Of a DNA stretch of 64,000 nucleotides, positions 40,193-58,956 are shown in pieces. The stretch lies in assembly GCA_023091665.1 (NCBI GenBank), contig JALJCQ010000029.1:186001-250000 (forward strand), written 5' to 3'. A model generated the notes under the pieces. The model was not told the DNA's origin, ran no database searches, and saw nothing but the letters and a program-made list of their open reading frames with translations. The DNA is from Pythium myriotylum (Eukaryota > Oomycota > Peronosporomycetes > Pythiales > Pythiaceae). Each line of letters begins with the position of its first letter. Positions within the stretch are counted from its first letter, which is position 1. The translations under genes were made by a program, and so were the position numbers.

Positions 40193-41755
40193 TCATTTCA
40201 CGAGCCGCACATGGAGCTCGGCGTGACCGCAGTAGGAGGCCCACGCTACCAGCCACGGCACGCGTCTGCATTCCTTGGGTCTGTTTCTCAGCCACAACGC
40301 AACGTACTCGCTTACCCACGCCGGTTCACTTGCAAGTCGCTGTCACTCGCGATGCACTCCGCCCGCGTGAACTCCGTCGAAGGCGTCCGAGAAGCTCCCC
40401 CACGCCTTTGGAAGGAACTCGAGGTCTTCTGGCTGATGCACAGGGTGCTCCAAGATAAATCTCACGACCTCGAGGTGGCCGCGCATTGCGCACTTCCAGA
40501 GCGTGTCGGCGTGGACTTTATAAAACGGACCAGCACACGCAAGCCACTCGACGATCTCTCGATGGCCCTGAAGCGCTGCAGTCGCGAATGTGTCGTCGTG
40601 CATGAGCTCGAACTCGTAACTCATCCACCGAGCGACCACGCGGTTCCAGAGCTCAACGTTCTTGCCTCCGGGTGTGCCGCTCGCTAGCCACTTGGCTGTG
40701 GCGACGTCGCCGTGGCCGATGCCCAGACTCATGGCCTTCTTGGTTGCAAGCCGAATGCTTTTCTTGTACTCGAGCCACTTCAAGACAGCCAGCCGGTTGG
40801 ACGACACACAAGCAGCTTCAACTATGTGCGTCACCGTTGGCATTGCAATCGGTGCGTACTCCTCTAGCCACTCGAGTGATTCGACGTGGCCACCTTCCAA
40901 CGCGGCTACGAACGTGCTCGTCGTGGGTTTCACGCCGTGGACCTTGTCCAGCCAATGCATCGCCGCTACGTGGCCATTGCGAGCTGCCTCGTCGATCGCG
41001 GCTGGAGTGCATCCTTCGGTTCGATTCTCAGCGAGCCACTGGATCACGTGGAGATGGCCATTTGCCGCAGCCTTGTCCATGGCAGACGGCGTGCACGACC
41101 ACGGATACTCTTCTTCCTCTTCATGCATCGCCCATAGCAGACTCAAGTCCCCGTGGCCAGCGACAAAGTCCATGACACCGGAATATTGGCGAGTAGTGGC
41201 CCAGCCGTAGACTCTCTGCACCGGCGCGAGGCCGTGTTGCCTGGTCGCCAAGTATTTGCGGTTCACACGCTGGTTGTTGGCGTTCACGTACTGCACCGTC
41301 CACGCGAGCACAACCACGTCGCCGTCGTACGAGAGGAGGTAGTGAAGGTCCGTCTCGTACGGATGCAGCGGATCGTGCACGGCCAGAACGGCGCGCTCGC
41401 CAATCCACTTGGCGACGTCCAAGTGACCCGATCCTGCGGCTTTCGCCATGGCCTCGTGAGGTTCGTAGGCTGAGAGCGCGTGAAGCCACTGGACGGATGC
41501 AAGGTCTCCTCTTGTGGCTGCCTCGTAGATGCCGTAGGCGCTCAACGGAGGCTTCAGGAAACTGAATGAGAGACCTCCGATCACTGGCAGCGGAGATGGC
41601 ATGGCTAGGTACTCGTCGAGGCCTTCGCAACTCAGCAGGCGAAGCGTCGCAGTGTGACAGCCGTTCGCAGCCGCGCACTGAGTCTCAATTTTGAGCATAC
41701 CAACGACAGCGCTCGATGATTTGGTTCGGGAATGACACAATCGTACGCAGTGCAT
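40193..41755 (-). pseudogene. Broken copy of the WL-type ankyrin-repeat gene
   Basis: An open frame from the ATG at 41755 ends at 40343 after 470 residues. It is nearly identical to the intact gene at 57334..58956 (position sums of 99,149). Relative to that gene the TGG codon after GGVHRE is TGA here. Reading past it, the frame stays open for 50 more codons to a TGA at 40193 and still encodes the homologous tail. A single nonsense change is therefore enough to explain the shortening. The 5' end is also missing: similarity starts only at about 41686, and the first residues here are unrelated sequence. The protein has degenerate ankyrin-like repeats of the type A..GHL.V..WL. It may still be translated in truncated form. 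Confidence 0.75.
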
Positions 41756-41939
41756 GGAACGCGTTCACTTCGTACGTCAGGACGCCATTGTGTGGCTTTT
41801 TGGTTACTTGTTGAGAATGAAGACGAGTTGTGGGACAATAAATTTTGTGCCTTGCTTTTTCGCTGTCGACACGACTAGAACTGACAATGATATGAATTTG
41901 TGAATTTGCCACACTCTAAAACAAGAGTGGAATGCAATA

Positions 41940-44900
41940 TGTAAATCACGAAGGCTGGGTCGCAGATGTAGAGACCTCTGGAACAGCCGATCATGGCAGA
42001 TCCACCACTTCAATGAACTCGTCTGCGTAACCGCTTATCTTGAGCACCTCCGGGTGGATCCAGACGCTCTGTTTCTTGCTCACCTTGAAGTGTGCGTCAA
42101 TGTTAACGTTTTTCAAAGCCTTGTACAGCTTCAGCTTCGATTTCTTGCGTACTTCAGTCAGACCGCAGATTTGGATGAGAGTGTTGAGGAGATCCGCTGT
42201 CCTCTCCCTCTTCGTCTCATCCAGCTTTTCCGCCTGGATGACCCCATCGTCGCTAAGTTCGAGATTATCGATGCGCTCGTGGACTTGCTGAGATTTTATG
42301 ACTCGCTGTGATCCATCAGATGTCGGATTTGACCAACCCTCGCCCAAGTACCTCTCAAGAATCTTGCGAGGTAGTAGAAAGCGCAGAGCCGCACCGATAG
42401 ACTGTATGCAACAGAGCATTAGAAGCGCTACTGCAAAATCGAACCAGTCGTTTGTGGACTAGCTTACCATTATGATCTCGCCGCACTTGCTCACTGCTTT
42501 CGCTAGCACTTTCACTTCAATCGGATCGCCTTCGTGAAAGCACATCTTGGACAGCTGGCACTGCAAGCGAAGTTCACGTGCGTCGAATACTGAAGAGCAG
42601 CGGCATCCCTCTTGCATTGTCTTCTTCGAAAGAGACCAGGCAGTATGATGTTCGCCATTATCGGAGTCGCGCTTGGCTGGCAATTTTTGCACCGCGTCAT
42701 GCGACAAGTCCTCGTCCTCAAGCTTCCAATCTTCGCGAACCCACTTCTTCTCAACATACCACTCCATTAAAGGCGGGAGCATACAGTTGTCCTTCTTCAG
42801 CTGCGCGCGGACATCTATTTTGTTGTCTCCCGTCACGACATTGTACGCGGTCTGAAGTCCTGGATAGGAATCGAGTAGTTGCTCCAAGCAGACGACGAGT
42901 TCCGCTAGTTTGCGTCTTGCAACTGGCAAGGTGTTCGCTCTGACTTGAATCTTGATGACCGAGACCCCACCGTTTGACGTGGCTTTCCACTTCGAAATTC
43001 GAGCTACGTACTCCTTTCGATCATTTGTTTCAGAGACGTCTTCCCTGCATTCTTCAGTCTGAAAGAGATCTTGGTAAAGGTACTGGCAGTCCCACGCATG
43101 TAGATCATGACTCTTCACGATGAATCGATCAAACAAGCTGTCTGGGAGTCCATTCCTGAACTCGTACTCCCAGCACATGTACTCCTTGTGCTTCCCCCAT
43201 GATTCGTCTTTCTTTATTTCTTCGGGCGCGACCTTCCAGTAGACGGGCACAATGAGATCCGAACCCGCAGCCATCGATTGCCCTCCGGCAGGGTATACTA
43301 TTTGAAGATGATACAGCAGATCCTTCAGTCGTAGCATCAGACTTTCGTCTCGAACCTTGGACCACGGCTGAAGATACCATATCATGTCATGAGTCACACG
43401 TCCTTCTTCCCTCATGGACTTCTTGCCCCGTGAGGCCTCTTCCGACTTCTTCGATATGTTGTTATTGACGATGCTTCCTATGCAGTCAATGACTAGACTC
43501 GGACTGACGAAGACAATATCCTTCAGCGAATTGCTACTTTTCTCGAACCACAAGATATCGCCGAGATTATGCAGCACACGCAAGATCGACTTGGCACCAT
43601 TGTCCGCTAACTCTTCGTCGCCGACTTGAAACCTTATTTTGTTTATGAGGACATCTAGTCTCACAAGATGCTTCTTGATTCGGTCGCTCTCTGATTCGTC
43701 TTGTGCACTGTGTATTTGACGAGCAATATCTCGCCACTTGGATGGCAATATGGGGATCAGATCCTCCGAAGAAGAGATTGTCTCTTCGAGCTGCTTTACG
43801 AAGTCGGCGATACCTGCGCCCGTATCGCTGCTCACGGAGACCATTCTCCTTTTGAGTAGTGCGTCAACAATTTGTCGGTCTTCGGAAAGTTGTACTTGGT
43901 TGGCTCGAGCTTCCTCACCCATCTTTAGGTTCCGATTTTTGTACCACTCAGTGTTCTCGACAGCTTGATGCACTCCTGTTTTGTTGAGAAATTTGTTTTC
44001 GTTGAGAACGGCTTTTTCAAGGCCACTCGACACTTCGTCGAGGTGATTTTTGCGAGAAGTGAGCTCCTCGTCCAATCGACGTTCTAATCTATCCATGACA
44101 TCGCTAACGAGATCACCGACTTTAACATCCTCCACCAGATCGGCTTTCGTTCCGACCAAGATAAAGTCCGCAATGCCTTTGTTAGCAGCGCAGATAGCAT
44201 CCACTCGACTGTAGATATTCTTGTCAAAGAAGTTGTCGAGTGCCTTCTCGTTATTGGTTGTGATTTTCTTGTAAACTTCGCTGTACGCGGCAAGGTCTAC
44301 ACAGACCACGTAAAGAGCTTCTTCTGAGAAGAAGAGCGAGTGAGCCGATTGATATACATCCTCGCCAGCAAAGTCCCAGATCGACACTTCACAACGGCAA
44401 CCATGTTCCTGTGAGATTGCAATGTTCCACGAGAAGAGGTCAACACCGATAGTACGCGCTTCTTCTTGGGGTTCGAGGGAGGGTTGATCGGTCAGCGTTT
44501 TGACAGTTCGTGTTTCTTGCGGTTCGAGTGTAGATGTTTCCATTAGCTTTTTGATAAGCTTGGTTTTGCCGCACTTGCCCGGACCAACAAAGCACAACTT
44601 CTTTCGATGTTCTCCACCAGAATGGACGAGGTCTTTGAAAAAGCGTTTGACGATATCTTCGCCAGCATCGAGGACTGAGCGGGGTACAGTTGACAGTTTC
44701 TCGCCACACATTCCGTTTGTTTGTGCGGCATTCTTCTCTTTCGCTCGAGGTTTCGCGTTGCATTGATCTCTCCACCCGCGGATAACCGCCAAGATGACAG
44801 CTTTATCTGGAAAATCCAGGCCTCCCAGCCTCTTTTGAATACTCTCGAATGATCCCCCGTGGCTTAGCATGGTCCTCACCATCGGCAAGTAGGACGTGAG

Positions 44901-46080
44901 TAATCTCTGCAACACCCAGCAGCACCACGTATCGGAGTAGAGTTTAGATACAGACTGACACCACCACACGGAGCACTCAAACTGATCGCACCTCTTTGCT
45001 TGTGTTCGCAATCTCATCTCCAGCAAGCATCAAAGGGGTTACGCCTTCCTGCACACATCGCACCCAAGCATTTTAGTTCGGACCCGACGAAGCCAATTCC
45101 TTTCTCACCCACGTACCTTGTTTTCGGCGGCGATGGAGCATCCCCCATCCAACAACAGCTTCACCACTTCCAAATAGCCACCACACGCAGCACTGTGCAG
45201 CGCTGTGGCACCATCCTATGCAGAAGCCCCGCATCGTTCGGTTAGTGTTAGCGTCCAGAGTGGTTGTCAAGGGTTCGAGCTCGCGTACATTATTTGGAAT
45301 CTCTTTCGAGCAGTTTGACTCCAACAATAATCTCACGATATCCTCATTCGCTTTGCCGGCTGCAATGTGCAGTGCTGTCCGTCCCCACTGGAGATTCAAA
45401 ACCACTCACATCAGAAACAGCATCCACAATGCGACACGAAGGAATCCTGCTTCCTGACATCGTCTTGCGCGTCGATCGAGCAGCCTCGTTCCACTAGTAG
45501 TTTCACCATGTCCGAGTTATCATTCCTCGTGGCTATGTGCAATGCTGTCCAACCATCCTGGGCAAGTACAAAGTCGATCGGTGATGTGACAAGATAGCAC
45601 GCAGTTACCACTAGTGTGTTAGCCGACGTACCCTATCTTTCGCATCTAGTGGACAGCCTTGATCCAGCAACGCTTTCACTTCACCGACAGAGTCACGAAG
45701 CGCAGCTTGGAGAAGCCTTGCTCCGTCTGGTCGCTTTTCCATCGTGGTTGGTATCTTCAATGCAGGTGAGTCAACTCCGCTGTTTCCCCTGCTACTGCAC
45801 ATCCCACATAGTGACCACTCACCGCATCTCGTGACTCGTTCTCGCCGCCGCCTGGATTCTGCTGCAGATCGTCCCTTGTCGTGTAACTCTGTAGCTCCTC
45901 ATCGTCTACCTCTGGTCCCACCGTCGCCTTCTCGCGACTCTCCACACACTCGGCGGTCAACTCGTTCGCACTCATGGGCGTCGTGGGAAATGCTCGACTG
46001 AGCGTGCGACTCGAATCGCCGCGTGAGGTGCCTCCTCGTTTCGCCACGCGAAACGGACACCTCTTTGGATTGAGAAGGCG
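41940..46080. repeat. Arm A of the ROCO inverted duplication
   Basis: This segment is inverted relative to about 48780..52915. Position sums are 94,880 through the ankyrin exons and first part of the GTPase domain, then 94,853 after a 27-base length difference. Introns are as similar as exons between about 44110 and 45460, so the duplication, or a conversion event, is recent. Ends are approximate. Confidence 0.85.
41991..45742 (-). CDS. Ankyrin-Roc-COR (ROCO family) GTPase, copy A
   Basis: Inferred exons, minus strand: 45742..45632, 45557..45459, 45387..45289, 45215..45117, 45048..44992, 44906..42468 and 42401..41991, about 1,104 residues from this ATG. The first five exons encode ankyrin repeats, one each, all phase 0 (for example DGWTALHIATRNDNSDMVKL). 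The large exon holds a Roc GTPase domain: P-loop GPGKCGKT, switch motif WDFAGEDVYQ, and GTKAD for guanine recognition. A COR-type region follows (LGDILWFEKSSNSLKDIVF). The last exon is a C-terminal domain I do not recognise (ALRFLLPRKILERYLGEG). There is no kinase domain. ROCO proteins are dimeric GTPase switches. The upstream exon used in copies B and C (ATG at 45975 here) cannot be joined in frame, because A has four fewer bases before the shared AAG codon. Confidence 0.75.
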
Positions 46081-46163
46081 CGCGTGGGCGGTTGCGAGAA
46101 GATGAAGACGAAACCTCCTCTCTCTCCCTTGGTTCGGTAATCCTGAAGACTAGATGGCTTCAT
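45972..46163 (-). CDS. Small upstream frame of ROCO copy A
   Basis: This is a 63-residue ATG-initiated frame. Its TGA overlaps the ATG at 45975 as ATGA, a layout shared with copy B. The conserved part is SQPPTRAFSIQRGVRFAWRNE, cut at the limit here, then IRVARSVE..RRP. Two of the base differences from copy B (in SIQ and GVRF) are silent in this frame but would change residues in the overlapping frame, so this frame is more likely the coding one. The product is short and basic. Its hydrophobic part is much weaker than in copy B. Confidence 0.5.
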   Translation of the reverse strand: MKPSSLQDYRTKGERGGFVFIFSQPPTRAFSIQRGVRFAWRNEEAPHAAIRVARSVEHFPRRP

Positions 46164-46256
46164 ATCTGCACGATGTTGGCCTCGTCAGGTAGACCACCAT
46201 GTACAGGTCCTTCTCCTTGTTCTCGGGCGCCGCCAGCATGGCCACGTGAAGTATAA

Positions 46257-46342
46257 CCAGATAAATCTGGATACTATTGGCCCAATAGTATCCAAAAATG
46301 GGTCAGTATGACCCAATAGTATTGGGTCATACTGACCCATTT
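46257..46342. repeat. Three consecutive perfect palindromes
   Basis: The palindromes are 46257..46270 (6+2+6), 46269..46293 (12+1+12) and 46296..46342 (23+1+23), all with perfect arms. The second and third share the motif CCAATAGTA. They lie in the spacer between inverted ROCO copies A and B. The arrangement resembles a fold-back element or cruciform-forming site. No transposase is nearby. Confidence 0.85.
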
Positions 46343-46474
46343 CTCAGCTTTACTCTCGCCCTCAGAGGACGAGAACCACCCGACACTATCTGAGGTCGGA
46401 GTGGCGGCTGCTAGGACGCAGCCCAGAATAGAACTCGAGGCCGCAAGGTCTCATCCCACCATATCCCCTGGACT

Positions 46475-46491
46475 ACCGTGCACTGCACGGT
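46475..46491. repeat. Short perfect palindrome
   Basis: Arms ACCGTGCA and TGCACGGT flank one central c. CCCACC about 20 bases upstream of the left arm could pair with GGTGGG at the right end. This palindrome belongs to the same hairpin-rich stretch as 46257..46342. Confidence 0.7.
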
Positions 46492-46651
46492 GGGAGGATG
46501 GAGAAGGGAAGAAAAGACAGAGTTGAATTAGCTCTAAACCACGCAAGTAAACGTTGGTGTGCTTTGGGAGTTCCAGCTCCCACGACGGTGTTCCTACCCG
46601 ACTATTCGACGGAGGCATACTACACCACGTCGGCCCGCTTTAGATCAACGT

Positions 46652-46714
46652 GGAGTCTTGTCTGAGTGGTCGCTGACTCAGCCAGCAACCGCGTGTTCAA
46701 ATGATGGTGACTCT
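46652..46714 (+). other. tRNA-like stretch with A- and B-box-like motifs
   Basis: TGTCTGAGTGGTC (from 46659) matches a tRNA-Leu-type A box at 11 of 13 positions, by eye. GTTCAAAT, about 33 bases on, resembles a B box. The ends GAGTC and GACTC can pair and a short D-stem (GTC/GAC) is possible. However, the T stem does not pair and no clear anticodon arm forms. It may be a decayed tRNA or the head of a tRNA-derived short repeat. Confidence 0.3.
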
Positions 46715-47453
46715 AAACGTAACGGCCGTGTTGTGTGGCCACTGAACTAGTTTCTGCTGCAGAACGAGCAACGTGCCATTTGACAACCAGTAGGGTCTTG
46801 GGTGTTGCTACAGACTGGACAAAGCCAATGCTCGGGAAAGAGAAGTGCTGTTCCCGTTACGATCACGAACAACAGGTCATGGGAGCAAGCGCTCCATTCT
46901 AGCAAGCTGGACCGCTGGATTCTGGTAACATCATCATTTGAATTTTCACGATGACTAATTTCTGTGCCAGATTTTGCACAATGATTGATATTCATTCCGA
47001 TGCACACAATGGATCACAGATAATGTCCACTAGACTCTAGTGGCCTTTAGTCACTATCAATAGAGGCCAGATCGAGAACACACATGAGTTCTTTAGAAAT
47101 ATCTGACAGTGAAGGCTCGGCTAATGGCGCAGACTGTCGATCGTATCACGGCCGACGAAAAGCTGTGCAACAGGCTGGGTGCTACAACACGGACTCCACC
47201 TAGACCGGAATTCCCGCTTCCTGTGCTATAATTCGTGCATTTCGACTTGAACTCCTCGAAGGTTGTCGTGAACTAGAGTGGTTAACGATTTTCCTGTTTT
47301 CATTGATCGAAGACCACATGGAGAGTCAACTTCACTTCCCATCACTCAATACACAACAATACAGACAATATAGAGACGATAAGACACGTGTTTGACTAAT
47401 GGAGAATTTGACACCTCCAGGATATGTAAGTATGCACAATATACAGAAAAAGA
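46715..47453. other. Intergenic, no gene seen
   Basis: This is AT-richer spacer sequence between the ROCO arms, downstream of the PAM2-motif gene. Only short frames without domains are present. Confidence 0.5.
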
Positions 47454-48459
47454 TCACGGGAAAAAGTCGCTACCGGAAGGCTGTGGCAAGTGATCGTACG
47501 TCTGCTGGAACTGGAACGCATTCGGAGGTGTTAACGTGGTTGAGGATGCTCCGCTGGACGAGCGCGGCGGAGGCTGACCAAACACGAACTCTGCCGCCTT
47601 GGCGTTCAGTGTTGAGGTCGCGCCCGCACTTGCGTCTGCGGTCGGTCGTGTCTCTGGCCGGCTGAAGCTGAAGGCCTTAACAGTGGTGTCCAGGGGCGCT
47701 TGCTTGGATGACGAGTTGGCCTTGACCAGCTCACGCAGCTCGGCCATTTCTTTACGCAGCTCCTCGAGCTCTTCTTGCAAGTCGTGCACTTGCGCCTGAA
47801 GCAGATCTTCACGTGACAGCGGACACGGCTCAAGTGGCAGCGTGTATGTCGGAGCGAACATGGCGCCAAAGACGAGTGTGAGCGCGAGCGACATGCCCGA
47901 TCCTTCCGTCTGCAGAAGCAGTCGGTGCGGTCCATTCTGCGGATCCTTGAGCTTCTCCTACGAGCCCCGACCCGTGAGCAAATAGCAGCAAATAGCATTG
48001 ACCGTCAACCTCCTCCACTCCAAACCAAGCAGCAAGCCGCACGCACCACGAGAAAGTTGGCGACGACGTGGCGCGGCAGCTCCACGCTGCTGGGGCCGCA
48101 CTTGCGCATCGTGGCGTCGTCCAGGCGGCACTCCCTGGCGCCACCACGGCTGTCATTTCCTCCGAGCCAACGCCACCAGCCGCGTCCACCACGCACCATT
48201 TCTGCCGCGACCGACGCGACTCGAGCGTCACGGCCGTCTCGAGCTTGTCGGACGCCACCGAGAACCGGAAGCTCTCGCCGGGCATGTTCCAGAAGGCGGC
48301 TTTGCCGTCGGCCGCGACCGCCGACGTCGGCGGCGGCGACGCGCTGGACGGGAACAAGCCGCCGAGCCCGGGCGTCGGCGGCAGCGTCGAGAAGACAGAC
48401 GAGGCGACCGACGAGGCCGTGCTGGCGGCGCGCGAGAGCGAGGCGAAGGAGCCGTCCAT
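47454..48459 (-). CDS. Coiled-coil protein with a PAM2-like motif, three exons
   Basis: Inferred exons, minus strand: 48459..48197, 48134..48047 and 47957..47454. The introns are 62 and 89 bp, both with donor GTGCGT and acceptors CCAG and CGTAG. The product has 284 residues. Residues about 1-50 are Ser/Pro-rich. Residues about 55-165 look like a compact beta-rich head (SFRFSVASDKLETAVTLES, LPRHVVANFLVEKLKDP). A coiled coil follows (LLQAQVHDLQEELEELRKEM), then a low-complexity tail. In the tail, STLNAKAAEFVFG closely resembles a PAM2 motif, which binds the MLLE domain of poly(A)-binding protein. A head plus coiled coil is reminiscent of XRCC4-like folds, but I have no firm assignment. The gene sits in the spacer between the inverted ROCO copies and is not part of the duplication. 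Confidence 0.65.
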
Positions 48460-48697
48460 GGTGGGCAGCTCGTGCTCGGACGATGGATGTCAACGAGAAG
48501 AAGAAGAAGAAGAGGACCATCACTCGTTCGAACGCGGTCGTTTACGGCCAATCACATCGTCTGAAGGTGACTTTACAGCCAGTCACACGTCTTGTGGACA
48601 GATGTAGCCATGTGGGCTGGACGGTCACTATCGCGAGGGAACACGAAAAAGAGGAGACCGAGAGGGTCTTGTCAATGGCGATCCGACCACGCCCAAG

Positions 48698-48913
48698 ATG
48701 CCGCGAGAGAATCCGTTCGTGGCGTCGCGACAAAGCGACGGGGGTTTCCGCTCTTTGCTCTTCTTGTTCTTGTTCTTGTTCTTGGCGTCGCAACCGCCCA
48801 CGCGCGCCTTCTCGATCCAAAGAGGCGTCCGTTTCGCGTGGCGAAACGAGTTGGCGGCTCGCGCGTCGATTCGAGTCGCACGCTCAGTCGAGCAATCCGC
48901 ACGACGCCCATGA
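48698..48913 (+). CDS. Small upstream frame of ROCO copy B, signal-anchor-like
   Basis: This is a 71-residue ATG-initiated frame. A hydrophobic run (SLLFLFLFLFLASQPPTRA) is encoded by TTCTTG hexanucleotide repeats. A basic tail follows (FSIQRGVRFAWRNELAARAS and SVEQSARRP). The TGA at 48911..48913 overlaps the ROCO ATG at 48910 as ATGA. It could be a secreted or membrane-inserted peptide, or a regulatory upstream frame allowing reinitiation. The overlapping frame is also open and also hydrophobic, so the true translated frame is not settled. Confidence 0.5.
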   Translation: MPRENPFVASRQSDGGFRSLLFLFLFLFLASQPPTRAFSIQRGVRFAWRNELAARASIRVARSVEQSARRP

Positions 48914-51900
48914 GTGCGAACGAGTTGACCGCCGAGTGTGTGGAGAGTCGCGAGAAGGCTACGCTGGGACCAGAGGTCGACGACGAGGAGCAAAAACAGG
49001 GTGACAAGACAAGGAACGAGGCGCTGCAGAATCCAGACGACGAGAGCGAGACACGAGATGCGGTGAGTGGTCACTATGTGGGGAATGGCGGCGAAAATTG
49101 CAGAGCTGAGTGGTGGCGCTGCTCTGAAGATGCCAACAACGACGGATGAGGGACCGGATGGAGCGTGTCTTCTCGACGCTGCGTTTAGTAACTTTGTCGA
49201 TGAGGCGAAATGGTTGCTGGATCAAGGATGTACGCTAGATGCGAAAGATGGGGTACGCTAACACATTGGTGGTGACTGCACACCATCTTCTGATGTCGGC
49301 GATCCGCTGCATTCTTGCCCAGGATGGTTGGACGGCATTGCACATAGCCGCAGAGAAAGGCCATTCGGCCATGGCGAAACTACTGGTGGAACGAGGCTGC
49401 TCGATCGACGCGCAAGACGATGTCAGGAAGCAGGATTCCTTCGTGTCGCATTGTGGATGCTGTTTCTGATGTGAGTGTTTTTGAATCTCCAGTGGGGACG
49501 GACAGCACTGCACATTGCAGCCGGCAAAGCGAATGAGGATATCGTGAGATTATTGTTGGAGTCAAACTGCTCGAAAGAGATTCCAAATAATGTACGCGAG
49601 CTCGAACCCTTGACAACCACTCTGGACGCTAACACTAACCGAACGATGCGGGGCTTCTGCATAGGATGGTGCCACAGCGCTGCACAGTGCTGCGTGTGGT
49701 GGCTATTTGGAAGTGGTGAAGCTGTTGTTGGATGGGGGATGCTCCATCGCCGCCGAAAACAAGGTACGTGGGTGAGAAAGGAATTGGCTTCGTCGGGTCC
49801 GAACTAAAATGCTTGGGTGCGATGTGTGCAGGAAGGCGTAACCCCTTTGATGCTTGCTGGAGATGAGATTGCGAACACAAGCAAAGAGGTGCGATCAGTT
49901 TGAGTGCTCCGTGTGGTGGTGTCAGTCTGTATCTAAACTCTACTCCGATACGTGGTGCTGCTGGGTGTTGCAGAGATTACTCACGTCCTACTTGCCGATG
50001 GTGAGGACCATGCTAAGCCACGGGGGATCATTCGAGAGTATTCAAAAGAGGCTGGGAGGCCTGGATTTTCCAGATAAAGCTGTCATCTTGGCGGTTATCC
50101 GCGGGTGGAGAGATCAATGCAACGCGAAACCTCGAGCGAAAGAGAAGAATGCCGCACAAACAAACGGAATGTGTGGCGAGAAACTGTCAACTGTACCCCG
50201 CTCAGTCCTCGATGCTGGCGAAGATATCGTCAAACGCTTTTTCAAAGACCTCGTCCATTCTGGTGGAGAACATCGAAAGAAGTTGTGCTTTGTTGGTCCG
50301 GGCAAGTGCGGCAAAACCAAGCTTATCAAAAAGCTAATGGAAACATCTACACTCGAACCGCAAGAAACACGAACTGTCAAAACGCTGACCGATCAACCCT
50401 CCCTCGAACCCCAAGAAGAAGCGCGTACTATCGGTGTTGACCTCTTCTCGTGGAACATTGCAATCTCACAGGAACATGGTTGCCGTTGTGAAGTGTCGAT
50501 CTGGGACTTTGCTGGCGAGGATGTATATCAATCGGCTCACTCGCTCTTCTTCTCAGAAGAAGCTCTTTACGTGGTCTGTGTAGACCTTGCCGCGTACAGC
50601 GAAGTTTACAAGAAAATCACAACCAATAACGAGAAGGCACTCGACAACTTCTTTGACAAGAATATCTACAGTCGAGTGGATGCTATCTGCGCTGCTAACA
50701 AAGGCATTGCGGACTTTATCTTGGTCGGAACGAAAGCCGATCTGGTGGAGGATGTTAAAGTCGATGTTCTTGTTAAGGATGTGTTGGACCGATTGAATTG
50801 TCGATTGGACGAGGAGCTCACTTCTCGCAAAAATCACCTCGATGAAGTGCTTCGTGATCTCGAAAAAGCCGAAACAGCAGTATGTGAAGCTGTCAAGAAC
50901 GCCAAGTGGTACGAAAATCGAAAGCTTAAGATGGACGAGGAGGCTCGAGCCAACCAACTACAAGTCTCTTATGATCGACAGATCTTTGAGGCACTACTCA
51001 AAAGGAAAATGGTCGCAGTGAACAGTGATACGGGCGCAGGTATCGCTGACTTTGTAAAGCAGCTCGAGGAGACAATCTCCTCTTCGGAGGATCTGATCCC
51101 CATATTGCCATCAAAGTGGCGAGATATTGCTCGTCAAATACACAGTGCACAAGACGAATCAGAGAGCGACCGAATCAAGAAGCATCTTGTGAGGCTAGAT
51201 GTTTTCATAAACAAAATAAGGCTTCAACTCGGCGACAAAAAGTTAACGGACAACGATGTCAAGTCGATCTTGCGTGTGCTGCATAATCTCGGCGATGTCT
51301 TGTGGTTCGAAAAAATTAGCAATTCGCCGAAGGACATTGTCTTCCTCAGTCCGAGTCTGGTCATTGACTTCATACGAAGCATCGTCAATGAAGACACATT
51401 AAAAACGTTGGGCGAGGTCCCAGACGGCAAAAAATCGATGCAGGAAGTAGGGCGCGTGACTCATGACATGATATGGTATCTTCAGCCGTGGTCCAAGGTT
51501 CGAGACGAAAGTCTGATGCTACGACTGAAGGATCTGCTGTATCATCTTCAAATAGTATACCCTGTCGGAGCGCAGCCGATGACTGCGGATTCGGATCTCA
51601 TTGTGCCCGTCTACTGGAAGGTCGCGCCCGAAGAAATAAAGAAAGACGAGTCGTGGAGGAAGTACAAGGAGTACATGTGCTGGGAGTACAAGTTCAGGAA
51701 CAGATTCCCAGACAGCTTGTTTGATCGATTCATCGTGAAGAGTCATGATCTGCACACGTGGCACTGCCAGTACCTTTACCAAGATCTCTTTCAGACTGAA
51801 GAATGCAGGGAAGACGTCTCTGAAACAAATGATCGAAAGGAGTACGTAGCTCGAATTTCAAAGTGGAAAGCCACGTCAAACGGTGGGGTCTCGGTCATCA

Positions 51901-52915
51901 AGATTCAAGTCAGCGCAAACACCTTGCCAGTTGCAAGACGCAAACTAGCGGAACTCGTCGTCTGCTTGGAGCAACTACTCGATTCCTATCCAAGACTCCA
52001 GACCGCGTACAATGTCGTGACTGGAGACAACAAAATAGATGTCCGCGCGCAGCTGAAGAAGGACAACTGTATGCTCCCGCCTTTAATGGAGTGGTATGTT
52101 GAGAAGAAGTGGACTCGCGAAGGTTGGAAGCTTGAGGATGAAGACTTGTCGCATGACGCGGTGCAAAAATTGCCAGCCAAGCGCGACTCCGATAATGGCG
52201 AACATCATACTGCCTGGTCTCTTTCGAAGAAGACAATACAAGAGGGATGCCGCTGCTCTTCAGTATTCGACGCACGTGAACTTCGCTTGCAGTGCCAGCT
52301 GTCCAAGATGTGCTTTCACGAAGACGATCCGATTGAAGTGAAAGTGCTAGCGAAAGCAGTGAGCAAGTGCGGCGAGATCATAATGGTAAGCTAGTCCACA
52401 AACGACTGGTTCGATTTTGCAGTAGCGCTTCTAATGCTCTGTTGCATACAGTCTATCGGTGCGGCTCTGCGCTTTCTACTACCTCGCAAGATTCTTGAGA
52501 GGTACTTGGGCGAGGGTTGGTCAAATCCGACATCTGATGGATCACAGCGAGTCATAAAATCTCAGCAAGTCCACGAGCGCATCGATAATCTCGAACTTAG
52601 CGACGATGGGGTCATCCAGGCGGAAAAGCTGGATGAGACGAAGAGGGAGAGGACAGCGGATCTCCTCAACACTCTCATCCAAATCTGCGGTCTGACTGAA
52701 GTGCGCAAGAAATCGAAGCTGAAGCTGTACAAGGCATTGAAGAACGTTAACATTGACGCACACTTCAAGGTGAGCAAGAAACAGAGCGTCTGGATCCACC
52801 CGGAGGTGCTCAAGATAAGCGGTCACGCAGACGAGTTCATCGAAGTGGTGGATGGGCCTTGATCGACTGTTCCAGAGGTCTCTACATCTGCGACCCAGCC
52901 TTCGTGATTTATATA
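48780..52915. repeat. Arm B of the ROCO inverted duplication
   Basis: This is the reverse-oriented partner of about 41940..46080. Similarity continues past the stop codon of copy B into the 3' flank, as far as the shared string GCATTCCACTCTTGT. Ends are approximate. Confidence 0.85.
48910..52862 (+). CDS. Ankyrin-Roc-COR (ROCO family) GTPase, copy B
   Basis: Inferred exons: 48910..49062, 49106..49252, 49323..49421, 49493..49591, 49665..49763, 49832..49888, 49974..52385 and 52452..52862, giving 1,158 residues. All introns fall between codons. Exon 1 (MSANELTAECVESREKATLG) is acidic. The 43-bp first intron is unusually short, so translation could instead start at a Met in exon 2. Exons 2-6 each encode one ankyrin repeat (the last partial). 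Exon 7 has the Roc domain (GPGKCGKT, WDFAGEDVYQ, GTKAD) and COR (LGDVLWFEKISNSPKDIVF). Exon 8 is the unrecognised C-terminal domain. No kinase is present. Family knowledge says the Roc-COR unit is a GTP-dependent dimerising switch. The ligand and output here are unknown. Confidence 0.8.
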
Positions 52916-53258
52916 TTGCATTCCACTCTTGTCTCAATAAAAGCGTGGTAAACTCACAGATTCATGGCGGATTCGCACATCGTCAGTTCTCGTCGTCTCT
53001 GAATAATCAACTAACAAGATACCATTGTCTACGACTCGTCGTTCGCTCGGGGAAAGTATTGTCACTTCCGGCCTAACTTGCCGAAACCCGACGGTCGGGG
53101 TCAGCCGCCTGCAGGCGATGGATTGCGTGCCTGGAGACGTTGCATGTCACTGAGGCACCGCAATGTAGCCATCTGGTCTTGAAGGCCATTTCCGCGAAGG
53201 ACCGCTCGAGAGAAGACAGCGAGAGCCTTGTCAAGGGCGATCCGACCACGCCCACAAG
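52863..53258. other. Spacer between ROCO copies B and C
   Basis: The first about 60 bases match the 3' flank of copy A. The rest is unique up to the leader duplicated upstream of copy C. No gene is supported. Confidence 0.5.
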
Positions 53259-53470
53259 ATGCCACGAGAGATCCGTTCGTGGCGTCGCGACAGAGCGACG
53301 GAGGTTTCCGCTCTTTGCTCTTGTTCTTGTTCTTGTTCTTGGCGTCGCAACCGTCCACGCGCGCCTTCTCGATCCAAAGAGGCGTCCGTTTCGCGTGGCG
53401 AAACGAGTTGGCGGCTCGCGCGTCGATTCGAGTCGCACGCTCAGTCGAGCAATCCGCACGACGCCCATGA
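53259..53470 (+). pseudogene. Damaged small upstream frame of ROCO copy C
   Basis: This is homologous to the frame at 48698..48913 and still ends in the ATGA overlap (ROCO ATG at 53467, TGA at 53468). Compared with copy B, one base is missing just after the ATG (GAGATCC against GAGAATCC), so the ATG at 53259 leads into another frame. The hydrophobic run and AFSIQRGVRFAWRNE remain in the original frame but have no ATG. The number of TTCTTG units also differs from copy B. Confidence 0.55.
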
Positions 53471-56400
53471 GTGCGAACGAGTTGACCGCCGAGTGTGTGG
53501 AGAGTCGCGAGAAGGCTACGCTGGGACCAGAGGTCGACGACGAGGAGCTACAGGGTGACAAGACAAGGAACGAGGCGCTGCAGAATCCAGACGACGAGAG
53601 CGAGACACGAGATGCGGTGAGTGGTCACTATGTGGGGAATGGCGGCGAAAATTGCAGAGCTGAGTGGTGGCGCTGCTCTGAAGATGCCAACCACAATGGA
53701 AAAGCGACCAGACGGAGCAAGGCTTCTCCAAGCTGCGCTTCGTGACTCTGTCGGTGAAGTGGAAGAGTTGCTGGATGAAGGCTGTCCACTAGATGCGAGA
53801 GATGGTGTACGTTGGCTAACACACTGGTGGTAACTGCGTGCTATCTTGTGACATCGCCGATCGACTTTGTACTTGTCCAGAATGGTTTGTCGGCATTACA
53901 CATAGCCGCAGAGAAAGGTAGTCCGGACATGGTGGAGCTACTGCTGACGCGAGGCTGCTTGATCGACGCGAAAGACAAGGTCAGAGAACAGGATTCCTTC
54001 GTGTCGCGTCGTGAGTGTTTTTCTGATGTGAGATATTTTGTTCTCTAGTGGGGAAGGACTGCACTGCACATTGCAGCCGACGAAGGCCATGAGGAAGTGG
54101 TGGAGTTGTTACTGGAGAGCAAATGTACAAAAGAAGAGCGAGACATTGTATGCGAACCCTTGGACTCCATTTGACTAGATGCTGACGACTATTGGCGTAG
54201 TATGGTGCGACAGCGATGCATATAGCTGCTCGTAGTGGTCGCTTGGAAGTGGTGAAACTGCTATTGGATCGGGGATGCTCCATCACCGCCGAAAACAAGG
54301 TAGGTGGGGTGAGAAAGAATGCTGTTTTATCGGGCTAAAACGACTGGATGTGATGTATGCAGGCTGGCATAGCGCCTCTGATGTATGCTGGAGACGGAAT
54401 CGCACATGCGAGCAAACAGGTGCGATAGTTTGAGCTCCGTTTGGCGGTTCCAGTCTGTAACTAAATTTTGCTGCGATATGTGATGTTGGGCGCTGCAGAG
54501 ATTACTTACGTCCTACTTGCCGATGCTGAGGACCATGCTGAGCCGTGGGGGATCATTCGAGAGTATCCAACGAAGGCTAGAAGAGTCAACTTTTCCAGAT
54601 AAAGATGTCATCATGGAGATTATTCGCGGGTGGAGAGGCCAATGGAATAGTGTTGAACCTCATACGAATAGTGTGGTAGCTCAAGTCAAAGACAAGAGGA
54701 TCAAAAAGAAGATTGAAGTGAACGGCGAGAAACTGTCCAGAGTACCCGGTTCAGTTCTTAATGCTGGCATCAGTGCGGTCGGACGTTTTTTCAAAGACCT
54801 CGGACATTTCGGTGGAGAACGCCGAAAAAAGCTATGTTTTGTTGGTCCCGGTGGGTGGGGAAAAACAAGTCTTATCAAAACGTTGATCGATAAACCCACG
54901 CTCGAATCACAAGAAACACGCACCATCGGTGTCGACCTGTTCTCGTGGAACTTCGCAATCCCACGAGAATATGATTGCAGATGTGAAGTCTCGATCTGGG
55001 ACTTTGCGGGCCAGGACGTGTATCAATCTGTGCACTCGCTGTTCTTCTCAGAAGAAACGCTCTACGTGGTCTGTGTAGACCTTGCCGCATACGGCAAAGT
55101 TTACAAGGATATCACAATTGATGAGAAGCCACTTGATGCCTTCTTCGATGAGAATATCTACAGTCGAGTGGATGCAATCTGCGCTGCTCACAAAGGCATT
55201 GCTGACTTCATCTTTGTTGGAACGAAAGTCGATATGGTGGAGGGTGCTAATGTCAATGATCTCGTTAAGGACGTCCTGGATCGATTCAATCGTCGTTTGG
55301 AAGAGGAGCTAAATTCACGCACCGAGCACTTCAAGGGCGTGTCATGTGAATCTGCGAAACCAAGTTTCCACGAGGAAACAGTGTCTGAGGCTATCAAGAC
55401 GACCGAGTGGTACAAAGACCGAGAAAACAAGAAATCCGAGGAGACCAAAGCCAACCAAGAGCAGCTGTATAAGGACCAAAAACATCTTAGGACCCTACGA
55501 AAGAGGAGTATGGTTCCCGTGAGCAGTAAGAAGGGCACAGGGGTCAATGAGTTTCGAGAGCAGCTTGAAGAGACAATCTCGTCTTCGGAAGATTTGATCC
55601 CTACGTTGCCATCCAACTGGAGAAACATTGCTCGTGAACTACACAAAAGAGAGGAGGCGGAATACGAAACAGAGAGCCACCGGATCAAGAACCTTTTCGT
55701 GAGCGTTGATCATCTCATAAACGAAATAAGGAGGCAACCCGACAATACGAAGTCAAGTGAACATGATATCAAGTTGATCTTGCGTGTGCTGCACAACCTC
55801 GGCGATATCTTGTGGTTTGAGAAGGTTTGCAACTCGCTGAACGACATTGTCTTCATCAGTCCAAGTCTAGTTGTCGACTTCATAAGAAGCATCGTCAATC
55901 AAGACATATCAAAGAAGATGGTCCCAGGCGGCATGAAATCCATGCAGGAAGAAGGACGAGTGGATAATGACATCATATGGTCTCTTCAGCCGTGGTCCAA
56001 AGTTCGAGACGAAAGTCTGATGCTCCAACTAAAGCATCTGCTTTATCACTTCCAAATAGCTTACCCTGTCGGAGGGCAATCGATGACTGCGGGTTCGGAT
56101 CTCATTGTGCCCGTCTACTGGAAGGTCGCGCCCGAAGAAATAAAGAAAGACGAATCATGGGGGAAGCACAAGGAGTACATGTGCTGGGAGTACAAGTTCA
56201 GGAACGGATTCCCAGACAGCTTGTTTGATCGATTCATCGTGAAGAGTCATGATCTACATGCGTGGGACTGCCAGTACCTTTACCAAGATCTCTTTCAGAC
56301 TGAAGAATGCAGGGAAGACGCCTCCGAAACAAATGATCGAAAGGAGTACGTAGCTCGAATTTCAAAGTGGAAAGCCACGTCAAACGGTGGGGTCTCGGTC

Positions 56401-57291
56401 ATCAAGATTCAAGTCAGAGCGAACACCTTGCCAGTTGCAAGACGCAAACTAGCGGAACTCGTCGTCTGCTTGGAGCAACTACTCGATTCCTATCCAGGAC
56501 TCCAGACCGCGTACAATGTCGTGACGGGAGACAACAAAATAGATGTCCGCGCGCAGCTGAAGAAGGACAACTGTATGCTCCCGCCTTTAATGGAGTGGTA
56601 TGTTGAGAAGAAGTGGACTCGCGAAGGTTGGAAGCTTGAGGATGAAGACTTGTCGCATGACGCGGTGCAAAAATTGCCAGCCAAGCGCGACTCCGATAAT
56701 GGCGAACATCATACTGCCTGGTCTCTTTCGAAGAAGACAATGCAAGAGGGATGCCGCTGCTCTTCAGTATTCGACGCACGTGAACTTCGCTTGCAGTGCC
56801 AGCTGTCCAAGATGTGCTTTCACGAAGACGATCCGATTGAAGTGAAAGTGCTAGCGAAAGCAGTGAGCAAGTGCGGCGAGATCATAATGGTAAGCTAGTC
56901 CACAAACGACTGGTTCGATTTTGCAGTAGCGCTTCTAATGCTCTGTTGCATACAGTCTATCGGTGCGGCTCTGCGCTTTCTACTACCTCGCAAGATTCTT
57001 GAGAGGTACTTGGGCGAGGGTTGGTCAAATCCGACATCTGATGGATCACAGCGAGTCATAAAATCTCAGCAAGTCCACGAGCGCATCGATAATCTCGAAC
57101 TTAGCGACGATGGGGTCATCCAGGCGGAAAAGCTGGATGAGACGAAGAGGGAGAGGACAGCGGATCTCCTCAACACTCTCATCCAAATCTGCGGTCTGAC
57201 TGAAGTGCGCAAGAAATCGAACCTGAATTTATACATGGCTTTGAAAGACTTCGACGAAGGCCGAGGTCTCGAGGCACGCAATACATCGTGA
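53467..57291 (+). CDS. Ankyrin-Roc-COR (ROCO family) GTPase, copy C
   Basis: Inferred exons: 53467..53616, 53660..53806, 53881..53979, 54049..54147, 54201..54299, 54363..54419, 54499..56889 and 56956..57291, giving 1,125 residues with all introns in phase 0. Ankyrin repeats are clear (NGLSALHIAAEKGSPDMVEL, WGRTALHIAADEGHEEVVEL). The Roc domain has GPGGWGKTSLIK, WDFAGQDVYQ and GTKVD, and COR follows. It lacks an 18-residue insertion that A and B have after the P-loop. Exon 1 and its intron, and everything after SDLIVPVYWK, are nearly identical to copy B, while the parts between are clearly diverged. The last exon departs from B after KKSNLNLYMALK and ends in 17 unrelated residues, so the C-terminal domain is truncated where this copy abuts the next gene. 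Confidence 0.8.
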
Positions 57292-57333
57292 GCAGTGCCG
57301 CTGCCTGTGGCAGGTGGAGGATATCGTCCAGCG

Positions 57334-58956
57334 ATGGCATTTGTGGTCGCGACGTGTAGAAGTTGCGCATGTCTCGTCACGTGGGCAATCGATCGAGATC
57401 TTCACGAAGGTGTGCGGCTACTCGTTGGTAACGCGAGTGGGGAGCTGTTCAGAAGCCAGGAATTGTTGCAGTGCGCGGCTGCGAACGGCTGTCACACTGC
57501 GACGCTTCGCCTGCTGAGTTGCGAAGGCCTCGACAAGTACCTAGCCATGCCATCTCCGCTGCCAGTGGTCGGAGGTCTCTCATTCAGTTTCCTGAAGCCT
57601 CCGTTGAGCGCCTACGGCATCTACGAGGCAGCCACAAGAGGAGACCTTGCATCCGTCCAGTGGCTTCACGCGCTCTCAGCCTACGAACCTCACGAGGCCA
57701 TGGCGAAAGCCGCAGGATCGGGTCACTTGGACGTCGCCAAGTGGATTGGCGAGCGCGCCGTTCTGGCCGTGCACGATCCGCTGCATCCGTACGAGACGGA
57801 CCTTCACTACCTCCTCTCGTACGACGGCGACGTGGTTGTGCTCGCGTGGACGGTGCAGTACGTGAACGCCAACAACCAGCGTGTGAACCGCAAATACTTG
57901 GCGACCAGGCAACACGGCCTCGCGCCGGTGCAGAGAGTCTACGGCTGGGCCACTACTCGCCAGTATTCCGGTGCCATGGACTTTGTCGCTGGCCACGGGG
58001 ACTTGAGTCTGCTATGGGCGATGCATGAAGAGGAAGAAGAGTATCCGTGGTCGTGCACGCCGTCTGCCATGGACAAGGCTGCGGCAAATGGCCATCTCCA
58101 CGTGATCCAGTGGCTCGCTGAGAATCGAACCGAAGGATGCACTCCAGCCGCGATCGACGAGGCAGCTCGCAATGGCCACGTAGCGGCGATGCATTGGCTG
58201 GACAAGGTCCACGGCGTGAAACCCACGACGAGCACGTTCGTAGCCGCGTTGGAAGGTGGCCACGTCGAATCACTCGAGTGGCTAGAGGAGTACGCACCGA
58301 TTGCAATGCCAACGGTGACGCACATAGTTGAAGCTGCTTGTGTGTCGTCCAACCGGCTGGCTGTCTTGAAGTGGCTCGAGTACAAGAAAAGCATTCGGCT
58401 TGCAACCAAGAAGGCCATGAGTCTGGGCATCGGCCACGGCGACGTCGCCACAGCCAAGTGGCTAGCGAGCGGCACACCCGGAGGCAAGAACGTTGAGCTC
58501 TGGAACCGCGTGGTCGCTCGGTGGATGAGTTACGAGTTCGAGCTCATGCACGACGACACATTCGCGACTGCAGCGCTTCAGGGCCATCGAGAGATCGTCG
58601 AGTGGCTTGCGTGTGCTGGTCCGTTTTATAAAGTCCACGCCGACACGCTCTGGAAGTGCGCAATGCGCGGCCACCTCGAGGTCGTGAGATTTATCTTGGA
58701 GCACCCTGTGCATCAGCCAGAAGACCTCGAGTTCCTACCAAAGGCGTGGGGGAGCTTCTCGGACGCCTTCGACGGAGGTCACGCGGGCGGAGTGCATCGC
58801 GAGTGGCAGCGACTTGCAAGTGAGCCGGCGTGGGCGAGTGAGTACGTTGCGTTGTGGCTGATGCATCGACCCGAGGAATGCAAACGCGTGCCATGGCTGG
58901 CAGCGTGGGCCTCCTACTGCGGTCACGCCGAGCTCCATGCGCAGCTTGTGAACTGA
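57334..58956 (+). CDS. WL-type ankyrin-repeat protein (intact copy)
   Basis: The protein has 540 residues from the first in-frame ATG at 57334; the frame is open from 57295. The body is built from degenerate ankyrin-like repeats of about 25-33 residues with the pattern A..GHL.V..WL (AAANGHLHVIQWL, AARNGHVAAMHWL, AALQGHREIVEWL, AMRGHLEVVRFIL). Such tryptophan-leucine ankyrin families are large in oomycetes and mediate protein binding. There is neither signal peptide nor membrane helix. It begins 42 bases after the stop of ROCO copy C, so its promoter must lie inside that gene's last exon or the two may be co-transcribed. The broken copy at 40193..41755 differs by only a few residues in the shared part. 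Confidence 0.75.
   Translation: MAFVVATCRSCACLVTWAIDRDLHEGVRLLVGNASGELFRSQELLQCAAANGCHTATLRLLSCEGLDKYLAMPSPLPVVGGLSFSFLKPPLSAYGIYEAATRGDLASVQWLHALSAYEPHEAMAKAAGSGHLDVAKWIGERAVLAVHDPLHPYETDLHYLLSYDGDVVVLAWTVQYVNANNQRVNRKYLATRQHGLAPVQRVYGWATTRQYSGAMDFVAGHGDLSLLWAMHEEEEEYPWSCTPSAMDKAAANGHLHVIQWLAENRTEGCTPAAIDEAARNGHVAAMHWLDKVHGVKPTTSTFVAALEGGHVESLEWLEEYAPIAMPTVTHIVEAACVSSNRLAVLKWLEYKKSIRLATKKAMSLGIGHGDVATAKWLASGTPGGKNVELWNRVVARWMSYEFELMHDDTFATAALQGHREIVEWLACAGPFYKVHADTLWKCAMRGHLEVVRFILEHPVHQPEDLEFLPKAWGSFSDAFDGGHAGGVHREWQRLASEPAWASEYVALWLMHRPEECKRVPWLAAWASYCGHAELHAQLVN

What the first reader, a model, noticed from the sequence alone, without database searches (positions are those of the whole stretch)
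40193..58956. Young inverted and tandem cluster of three ROCO GTPases and two ankyrin-type genes
Order: broken ankyrin gene and ROCO A on minus; ROCO B, ROCO C and intact ankyrin gene on plus. The position sums (94,853-94,880 for A/B; 99,149 for the ankyrin pair) fit one inverted duplication of a ROCO-ankyrin unit, followed by insertion or tandem duplication of copy C. Multi-copy repeat-GTPase receptors next to binding-repeat proteins resemble recognition gene clusters such as those in innate immunity or self/non-self systems. This is the best candidate here for an undescribed system.
Basis: partly seen in the sequence, partly recalled or inferred. Interest (0 to 1): 0.75.

Follow-up and report, generated by a model that had tools for sequence, protein, structure and literature searches.

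The report
Oomycete ankyrin-ROCO receptor-like gene family
Three neighbouring water-mould genes belong to a large, fast-changing family of GTPase proteins whose binding part is built largely from one interchangeable exon per repeat, which makes them good candidates for self/non-self recognition receptors; that role is not yet tested.

Summary
The window comes from an oomycete (135 elicitin matches). Three complete seven-exon ANK-Roc-COR (ROCO) genes lie at 41991-45742 (-), 49130-52862 (+) and 53684-57291 (+), flanked by two copies of an intronless ankyrin gene. The one-step inverted-duplication history is too simple: A, B and C are a mosaic, best explained by gene conversion. The "ROCO-ankyrin unit" is local: 41 of 49 ROCO places have no match to that ankyrin gene within 20 kb.

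The larger result lies outside the coordinates. The genome holds about 49 ROCO places, 22 of them in the last 0.6 Mb of one contig. In the stretches I could read (31 of 49 places), 125 of 153 ankyrin hits sit on single 99-nt phase-0 exons, in one gene as an array of 13. In some young arrays amino-acid change is concentrated at presumed binding-surface codons, above synonymous and intron rates. A 2024 survey reported at most four ROCOs per oomycete.

Best reading: an intracellular, diversifying recognition-receptor family, the ankyrin counterpart of brown-algal LRR-ROCO genes. Function is inferred; no expression or binding data exist here.

The parts
41991..45742 (-). ROCO A, 7 exons: 45742-45632, 45557-45459, 45387-45289, 45215-45117, 45048-44992, 44906-42468, 42401-41991; exons 2-4 are 99 nt, one ankyrin repeat each; the large exon carries Roc-COR
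   Evidence: exon model with open reading throughout, stop checked; Roc 55.8 bits; ankyrin Pfam
49130..52862 (+). ROCO B, 7 exons: 49130-49252, 49323-49421, 49493-49591, 49665-49763, 49832-49888, 49974-52385, 52452-52862
   Evidence: last exon printed to 52861; stop 52860-52862 checked; Roc 55.9 bits; ankyrin Pfam
53684..57291 (+). ROCO C, 7 exons: 53684-53806, 53881-53979, 54049-54147, 54201-54299, 54363-54419, 54499-56889, 56956-57291; 3' end differs from A/B
   Evidence: Roc 63.9 bits; ankyrin Pfam; predicted fold of the large exon matches LRRK2, LRRK1 and Chlorobium Roco
45459..45557 (-). exon 2 of A (first full ankyrin repeat): codons 10-14 differ from both B and C
   Evidence: translations; A/B 5 S and 8 N changes in this exon against 0 in exons 3-5
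44117..45395 (-). homogenised tract: at every informative site A agrees with B (B about 49485-50763), across exons, introns and the G1-G4 part of Roc
   Evidence: run of 278 informative sites shared by A and B only, shuffle maximum 33; coordinates read by eye from the alignment, approximate
53319..53686 (+). 5' flank tract where C is nearly identical to B, ending near the start codon; exon 1 of A then resembles C instead
   Evidence: 230 nt 100% identical (D4); B/C run of 29 and A/C run of 18 informative sites
40190..41755 (-). decayed ankyrin-type gene, different 5' end, one in-frame stop; 470-aa frame 40343-41755
57295..58956 (+). open, intronless ankyrin-type gene (frame from GTG 57295; first ATG 57334), Ank_4 56.5 bits

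Best explanation
A, B and C are members of a large oomycete family of ankyrin-Roc-COR GTPases that most likely act as intracellular recognition receptors. Shown: each carries N-terminal ankyrin repeats, three of them on 99-nt phase-0 exons, followed by a Roc GTPase and a COR-like region; family members vary in the number of repeat exons; some young arrays change fastest at presumed ligand-facing codons; A, B and C are a sequence mosaic; members occur as tandem and inverted copies. Inferred: the mosaic comes from ectopic gene conversion, the ankyrin stack binds a variable ligand (microbial, viral or from another individual), binding changes the nucleotide or dimer state of Roc-COR, and the signal passes through COR or the C-terminal region to an unknown partner. 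Symmetric phase-0 exons would let repeats be added, lost, swapped or skipped without breaking the frame.
For: Three complete genes under purifying selection overall (pN/pS 0.44-0.48) with P-loop and TKxD motifs kept. 66 family matches in 49 places; 26 neighbouring pairs within 30 kb against 1.2 expected, maximum 6 in 2000 random draws. 125 of 153 ankyrin hits are exactly AG-99 nt-GT in frame, against a mean of 3.6 and maximum of 15 for shifted windows. 13-exon array with pN 0.077, pS 0.050, intron 0.039. Over 125 exon pairs with intron divergence below 0.1: pN 0.235 at six codons taken from the DARPin design (recalled), pS 0.070, intron 0.041, pN elsewhere 0.055; 9 of 5000 random six-codon sets did as well. 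Variable sites pooled over three arrays: 12 of 54 in that set, 12 of 362 in introns, Fisher p 5.7e-6. Nearest-neighbour exon lies in the same gene for 57 of 123, 6.5 expected at random, ties counted as same gene. Pythium oligandrum has at least six ROCO proteins, four with consecutive locus tags; the ankyrin repeats of one (P0050) differ at positions that include 3, 8, 11 and 12.
Against: No expression, splicing, population or binding data. The diversification signal comes from relatives on C12, C17 and C19; A, B and C have only three full ankyrin exons and no clear excess of amino-acid change. Of five arrays, pN/pS was 1.56, 0.62, 0.91, 0.53 and 1.01; pooled within-gene comparisons give pN 0.286 below pS 0.471. 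One search looked at five arrays of my choice out of 24 locus-strands: C12 (11 of 12 units) and C17 (3 of 5) show the effect, C19 (3 identical units of 10) shows no variation, two were skipped. Exon pairs re-use exons. Recombination confounds such tests: in C17 synonymous divergence is also high in the 5' half of the exon (0.40 against 0.057). These codons vary in ankyrin repeats generally (recalled). No signalling domain beyond Roc-COR was found. 6 of 66 matches contain stops.
Confidence: 0.55

Rival explanations
1. Ordinary expanded signalling family: ANK-ROCO GTPases act in growth, development or sensing of the cell's own cues, as Dictyostelium Roco proteins or LRRK proteins do (recalled); variation reflects subfunctionalisation, and the surface codons vary because they are weakly constrained.
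For: The Roc-COR fold matches LRRK and bacterial Roco proteins; whole-gene selection is purifying; five of the six Pythium oligandrum relatives carry kinase domains in the precomputed Pfam lists, as LRRK proteins do.
Against: Weak constraint gives pN up to pS, not 3.4 times pS as, though recombination may inflate that ratio; about 49 clustered places with inverted and tandem copies and some broken members are unusual for core signalling (judgement).
Confidence: 0.27
2. Unstable repeat-rich genomic neighbourhoods: genes and exons duplicate and convert neutrally because tandem exons and inverted copies recombine; the apparent diversification is older variation redistributed by conversion beside freshly homogenised introns.
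For: Exon 5' halves carry synonymous divergence beside near-identical 3' halves and introns in C17 (pS 0.40 / 0.057 / intron 0.009, 3 pairs) and C19 (0.23 / 0.044 / 0.054, 6 pairs); mosaic A/B/C.
Against: In the 13-exon array (36 distinct pairs) synonymous divergence of the 5' half is 0.059, near intron 0.040, while pN there is 0.148; reading frames of A, B, C and GTPase motifs of 15 members are kept.
Confidence: 0.13
3. Assembly artefact: inverted copies are uncollapsed haplotypes or misjoined contigs.
For: C26 inverted pair is 99.7% identical over 3354 nt; a perfect 1153-nt inverted repeat lies at the window's left end.
Against: A, B and C differ by 7-18% with a switching closest pair and have non-repeated DNA between A and B; the C12 pair differs by 7%.
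Confidence: 0.05

Closest known systems
Brown-algal LRR-ROCO candidate immune receptors (Teng et al. 2024, PMC11378527; sections 10 and 11 read, other passages seen)
   Same: Stramenopile Roc family, 9 to 47 copies per genome in four species, one repeat per exon of constant length, positive selection at binding-face codons, varying repeat number
   Different: LRR on 72-bp phase-2 exons there, ankyrin on 99-bp phase-0 exons here; the passages seen say that most copies are dispersed in N. decipiens, here many are clustered; alternative splicing shown there, not testable here; that paper gives oomycetes at most four copies per species
Fungal NLRs with highly conserved ANK/WD/TPR repeats (Podospora; Dyrka et al. 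2014, PMC4986451, passages seen)
   Same: Ankyrin arrays with similar units, suggested concerted evolution and positive selection at concave-face positions; linked to non-self recognition
   Different: Fungal proteins use a NACHT or NB-ARC switch; here the switch is a Roc GTPase, and repeats sit on separate exons (fungal exon structure not compared)
LRRK1/LRRK2 and bacterial Roco proteins
   Same: Roc-COR fold; best structural matches; LRRK2 also has ankyrin repeats (recalled; C has a match to Pfam ANK_LRRK2 below the cut-off)
   Different: No kinase domain in the frames scanned here; no LRR found; about 15% identity in the structural alignments
Pythium oligandrum ANK-ROCO proteins (locus tags 001878, 001893-001896, 004505)
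   Same: Oomycete, neighbouring locus tags, ankyrin repeats in 5 of the 6 by my profile
   Different: Five of six carry a protein kinase domain in the precomputed lists; exon structure not seen

Membership tests
ROCO (Roc-COR) proteins | Roc GTPase domain | tested here: met
   55.8, 55.9, 63.9 bits against cut-off 27; 7 of 7 ROCO frames from other loci 52.9-61.3 (which scanned 10 frames; the other 3, taken beside ROCO frames, match no family)
ROCO (Roc-COR) proteins | COR domain directly after Roc | tested here: inconclusive
   COR-A 31.1, 28.7, 33.2 bits in A, B, C against cut-off 35.3; C reaches 35.7 with its neighbours in the frame; COR-B below cut-off in all three; over the cut-off in 5 of 7 other ROCO frames; fold search puts LRRK2, LRRK1 and Chlorobium Roco structures on top (model pLDDT 65.9), which supports COR
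ROCO (Roc-COR) proteins | GTP-binding motifs | tested here: met
   15 members aligned (of 49 places): P-loop GxxxxGK[TS] in 15 of 15, TK in 15 of 15 and TKxD in 14; switch II Gln in 13 of 15, Glu in A and B
Brown-algal-type repeat-per-exon ROCO receptors | one repeat per exon of constant length | tested here: met
   125 of 153 ankyrin hits on exact 99-nt in-frame exons, in stretches touching 31 of 49 places
Brown-algal-type repeat-per-exon ROCO receptors | LRR repeats on 72-bp phase-2 exons | tested here: not met
   repeats are ankyrin, 99 nt, phase 0; so an analogue, not a member
Brown-algal-type repeat-per-exon ROCO receptors | positive selection at binding-face codons | tested here: inconclusive
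Brown-algal-type repeat-per-exon ROCO receptors | alternative splicing of repeat exons | not testable with these tools
   no RNA data
NLR (NACHT/NB-ARC) receptors | NACHT or NB-ARC domain | tested here: not met
   none in Pfam scans of A, B, C or of 10 frames from other loci
LRRK/DAPK-type ROCO kinases | protein kinase domain | tested here: not met
   no kinase in the large exons of A, B, C or in 10 frames from other loci; most other loci were held with only 1.5 kb beyond the match, so distal exons could be missed there

The most novel reading that the evidence does not exclude
Oomycetes, credited in print with at most four ROCOs per species (PMC11378527), possess a large non-self recognition repertoire of ANK-ROCO proteins diversified by three layers: tandem and inverted gene duplication with conversion, amplification of phase-0 single-repeat exons, and exchange of a hypervariable 5' half-exon cassette (codons 1-16) between repeats, possibly with exon skipping adding variety in somatic cells. 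With brown algae this would make exon-modular ROCO receptors a stramenopile counterpart to NLRs, reached with two different repeat folds.
Probability: 0.35. Interest if true: 0.85.

Novelty: new variant of a known kind. Interest (0 to 1): 0.62.

Why it matters
How oomycetes defend themselves against viruses, bacteria and mycoparasites, or tell self from non-self, is little known (recalled; not established by a dedicated search). A family of about 49 places with modular, changeable binding repeats gives a concrete candidate. It also shows that the repeat-per-exon design known from brown-algal LRR-ROCO genes recurs in an oomycete with a different repeat, which makes convergence on, or ancient inheritance of, modular ROCO receptors in stramenopiles testable, and it runs against the published limit of four copies per oomycete species.

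Tried and rejected
ROCO-ankyrin gene as a unit: rejected as general; 41 of 49 ROCO places without a match to that gene within 20 kb. Of 46 merged ankyrin places 8 lie within 20 kb of a ROCO against 0.95 expected; 5 of the 8 are elsewhere than this locus, so mild clustering remains (the list comes, E 1e-10 or better, a lower bound).

ROCO C fused to the plus ankyrin gene through a 72-nt intron in the same frame: the donor at 57288 scores 3.5, near the 5th percentile of family donors (3.2), and no acceptor ending at 57359 passed the same cut. Not supported.

A first six-codon set (1, 3, 8, 11, 12, 14) was picked after seeing variability in the same data and gave stronger ratios (surface pN 0.28-0.37 against pS 0.07-0.08 for pairs with intron divergence above 0 and below 0.1); I rest on the DARPin-derived set instead.

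The plus ankyrin N-terminus compared with its paralogue at C29:255682 suggests decay there too; not pursued.

Protein searches reach only relatives that share exact words; they returned few named oomycetes, so copy numbers outside this genome are lower bounds. Paper searches, all by listing: ROCO with oomycete and ankyrin 0; with ankyrin and Phytophthora 0; ROCO with oomycete 5; Roc, COR domain, oomycete 0; ROCO with Phytophthora 13, 10 listed; ROCO with oomycetes 9. Searches took 'oomycete' as a whole word and so missed the plural; one search repaired that for ROCO only and its sole ROCO-titled paper is PMC11378527. Oomycete, ankyrin repeat, GTPase, expanded gene families: 0. Oomycete with allorecognition and NLR terms: 20, mostly fungal by title. 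Subscription papers are mostly not held. DARPin paper PMC8683736 (passages) confirms randomised surface positions but the passages give no numbers; the six-codon set is recalled from the DARPin design and shifted to this exon register by me.
Full report
OBSERVATION. The window is G000 contig C29:186001-250000 of a 58.7-Mb, 55-contig assembly. The genome is an oomycete's: 135 matches to the elicitin family, 0 of 14 control genomes (that elicitins mark oomycetes is recalled), and named ROCO hits from Lagenidium, Phytophthora and Pythium. The species was not identified. Self-comparison gives A/B 92.6% over 4251 columns inverted, A/C 81.7% inverted, B/C 82.4% direct, ankyrin pair 98.4% inverted.

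ANATOMY. All three ROCO genes read through as complete spliced genes in my models. Each has seven exons: a capping exon, three 99-nt exons that each hold one ankyrin repeat, a 57-nt exon, a large Roc-COR exon of about 2.4 kb, and a final exon. Pfam finds ankyrin repeats in the spliced N-termini (Ank_2 157, 111 and 136 bits for C, B, A), Roc far over its cut-off, and COR-A under its cut-off (C reaches 35.7 against 35.3 with its neighbours). AlphaFold2 of the large exon of C (pLDDT 65.9, pTM 0.65) matches LRRK2, LRRK1 and Chlorobium Roco best (E 1e-15 to 1e-17, TM by query length 0.40-0.47). No signal peptide is evident in the N-termini (my reading, no predictor run), so the proteins are probably intracellular. 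A and B share a 54-nt insertion after the P-loop and have Glu where the other 13 of 15 aligned members have the switch II Gln.

HISTORY. Along A, B and C the closest pair changes: the 5' flank pairs B with C, exon 1 pairs A with C, then A and B agree at every informative site over about 1.3 kb including introns, then all three differ (end of Roc to COR-A), then all are close (COR-B region: pS 0.04-0.07). Longest runs of informative sites are 278 (A=B), 29 (B=C) and 18 (A=C), against shuffle maxima of 33, 7 and 8; pattern switches 174 against a null mean of 346 and minimum of 319, over 682 sites. Ectopic gene conversion is the simplest cause. Overall pN/pS is 0.44, 0.48 and 0.45, so the proteins are constrained. 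The ankyrin-type copies are decayed (minus) and open (plus). The pairing is not general: 41 of 49 ROCO places lack a match to that gene within 20 kb.

FAMILY. ROCO C finds 66 matches at E 1e-10 or better (57 of 74 first-look candidates were scored, so a lower bound). They merge into 49 places when same-strand pieces within 1.2 kb are joined, 22 of them in C12:3.6-4.19 Mb; 26 neighbouring pairs lie within 30 kb, 1.2 expected. A few places may be pieces of one gene. COR-A alone finds 35 matches, 14 over the cut-off. 6 of the 66 matches contain stop codons. Two further inverted pairs occur. Pfam on ten frames from other loci gives Roc in 7, COR-A over the cut-off in 5 of those 7, no kinase, and nothing in the 3 frames taken beside ROCO frames.

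ONE REPEAT PER EXON. I held 26 stretches, touching 31 of the 49 places. An iterated ankyrin profile finds 153 hits. 125 are flanked exactly by AG and GT with 99 nt between, in frame; of the other 28, 10 fit 96 nt, 8 fit 102, 3 fit 93 or 87, and 7 fit none of the lengths tried. Windows shifted by 13-40 nt give a mean of 3.6 and a maximum of 15. The profile was seeded partly with window repeats, but the splice-site register does not depend on it. Some hits may belong to neighbouring genes. Most loci were seen with only 1.5 kb beyond the match; ten were extended by 4 kb. The gene at C12:4125193-4133500 has 13 such exons, 11 of 12 spacings being 229 nt. C19:620100 has 13 hits, seven of them consecutive and alternating between two types.

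DIVERSIFICATION. In the 13-exon array pN is 0.077, pS 0.050, intron 0.039; four other arrays gave pN/pS 0.62, 0.91, 0.53 and 1.01. Over 125 exon pairs with intron divergence below 0.1, pN at six codons that correspond to randomised DARPin positions (recalled set, fixed before this test but after I had seen the entropy profile) is 0.235, against pS 0.070, intron 0.041 and 0.055 at the other codons; 9 of 5000 random sets reach this. By gene the ratio of that pN to pS is 4.9 (C12 array), 2.6 (C19), 2.4 (C17) and 2.8 (all pairs other than the C12 and C19 arrays). Position 8 is also among the most variable but is not in the set. Counting variable sites avoids re-use of pairs: 12 of 54 in the set, 12 of 362 in introns, p 5.7e-6, from three arrays, one of which (three identical C19 units) shows no variation; two more were skipped for want of equal introns. 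Against this: pooled over all within-gene comparisons pN 0.286 is below pS 0.471, and in C17 and C19 the 5' half of the exon carries high synonymous divergence as well (0.40 and 0.23; 3 and 6 pairs) beside similar 3' halves and introns. That pattern points to exchange of a 5' half-exon cassette between diverged repeats, beside any selection; it is not seen in every gene. 57 of 123 exons have their nearest neighbour in the same gene, 6.5 expected, ties counted as same gene: concerted evolution.

OTHER SPECIES. Three protein searches show the family in named oomycetes and in environmental contigs (19 of the 23 hits). Pythium oligandrum has at least six members (locus tags 001878, 001893, 001894, 001895, 001896, 004505), with ankyrin repeats in 5 of 6 by my profile and a kinase domain in 5 of 6 by the precomputed Pfam lists; the six repeats of P0050 differ at positions including 3, 8, 11 and 12. 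A 2024 study (PMC11378527, section 10 read) states that oomycetes have no more than four ROCO copies per species; this genome and P. oligandrum exceed that.

MECHANISM. Shown: architecture, copy number, exon modularity, mosaic sequence, surface-biased change in some relatives. Inferred: conversion as the cause of the mosaic, ligand binding by the ankyrin stack, switching of Roc-COR, and a role in recognition of non-self. The closest working analogues are brown-algal LRR-ROCO genes (PMC11378527) and fungal NLRs with ankyrin arrays under positive selection (PMC4986451, passages). It is not a member of either: the repeat fold and exon phase differ from the first and the switch domain from the second.

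VERDICT. A real cluster by every test I could run, short of read depth; the cluster alone is a modest find, the family behind it is more interesting. Function remains unproven.

Noticed in passing
window 1-1153 and 1731-2883: Perfect inverted repeat, 1153 nt at 100%, 577 nt apart; the left arm reaches the window edge so it may be longer.
   Followed up: partly
window 2828-8497 (+): 1889-aa frame with five ricin-B lectin stretches and a sub-cut-off apolipoprotein-like match.
   Followed up: no
window 27157-36159 (-): 3000-aa single open frame with bromodomain, PHD fingers, FYRN/FYRC and SET; the make-up of a trithorax/MLL-type histone methyltransferase (label recalled).
   Followed up: no
window 25097-26890 (+): 597-aa frame with a von Willebrand D domain and weak EGF-like matches.
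   Followed up: no
window 42468-44906 (-) and 49974-52385 (+): A and B alone of 15 aligned members carry Glu in place of the switch II Gln, and an 18-residue insertion after the P-loop that C lacks; either may alter GTP hydrolysis.
   Followed up: partly
G000 C1:2.48-2.56 Mb: Dense elicitin cluster with groups of equal scores on both strands, suggesting recent duplication, perhaps inverted, there too.
   Followed up: no
C17:684200-692412 and C19:620100-628746: Ankyrin exons whose 5' half is diverged, also at synonymous sites, while the 3' half and intron are similar: a half-exon exchange pattern.
   Followed up: partly
window 57288-57359: ROCO C frame and ankyrin frame are in the same phase, separated by one stop and 42 nt to the first ATG; a fusing intron is not supported by splice scores.
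   Followed up: yes
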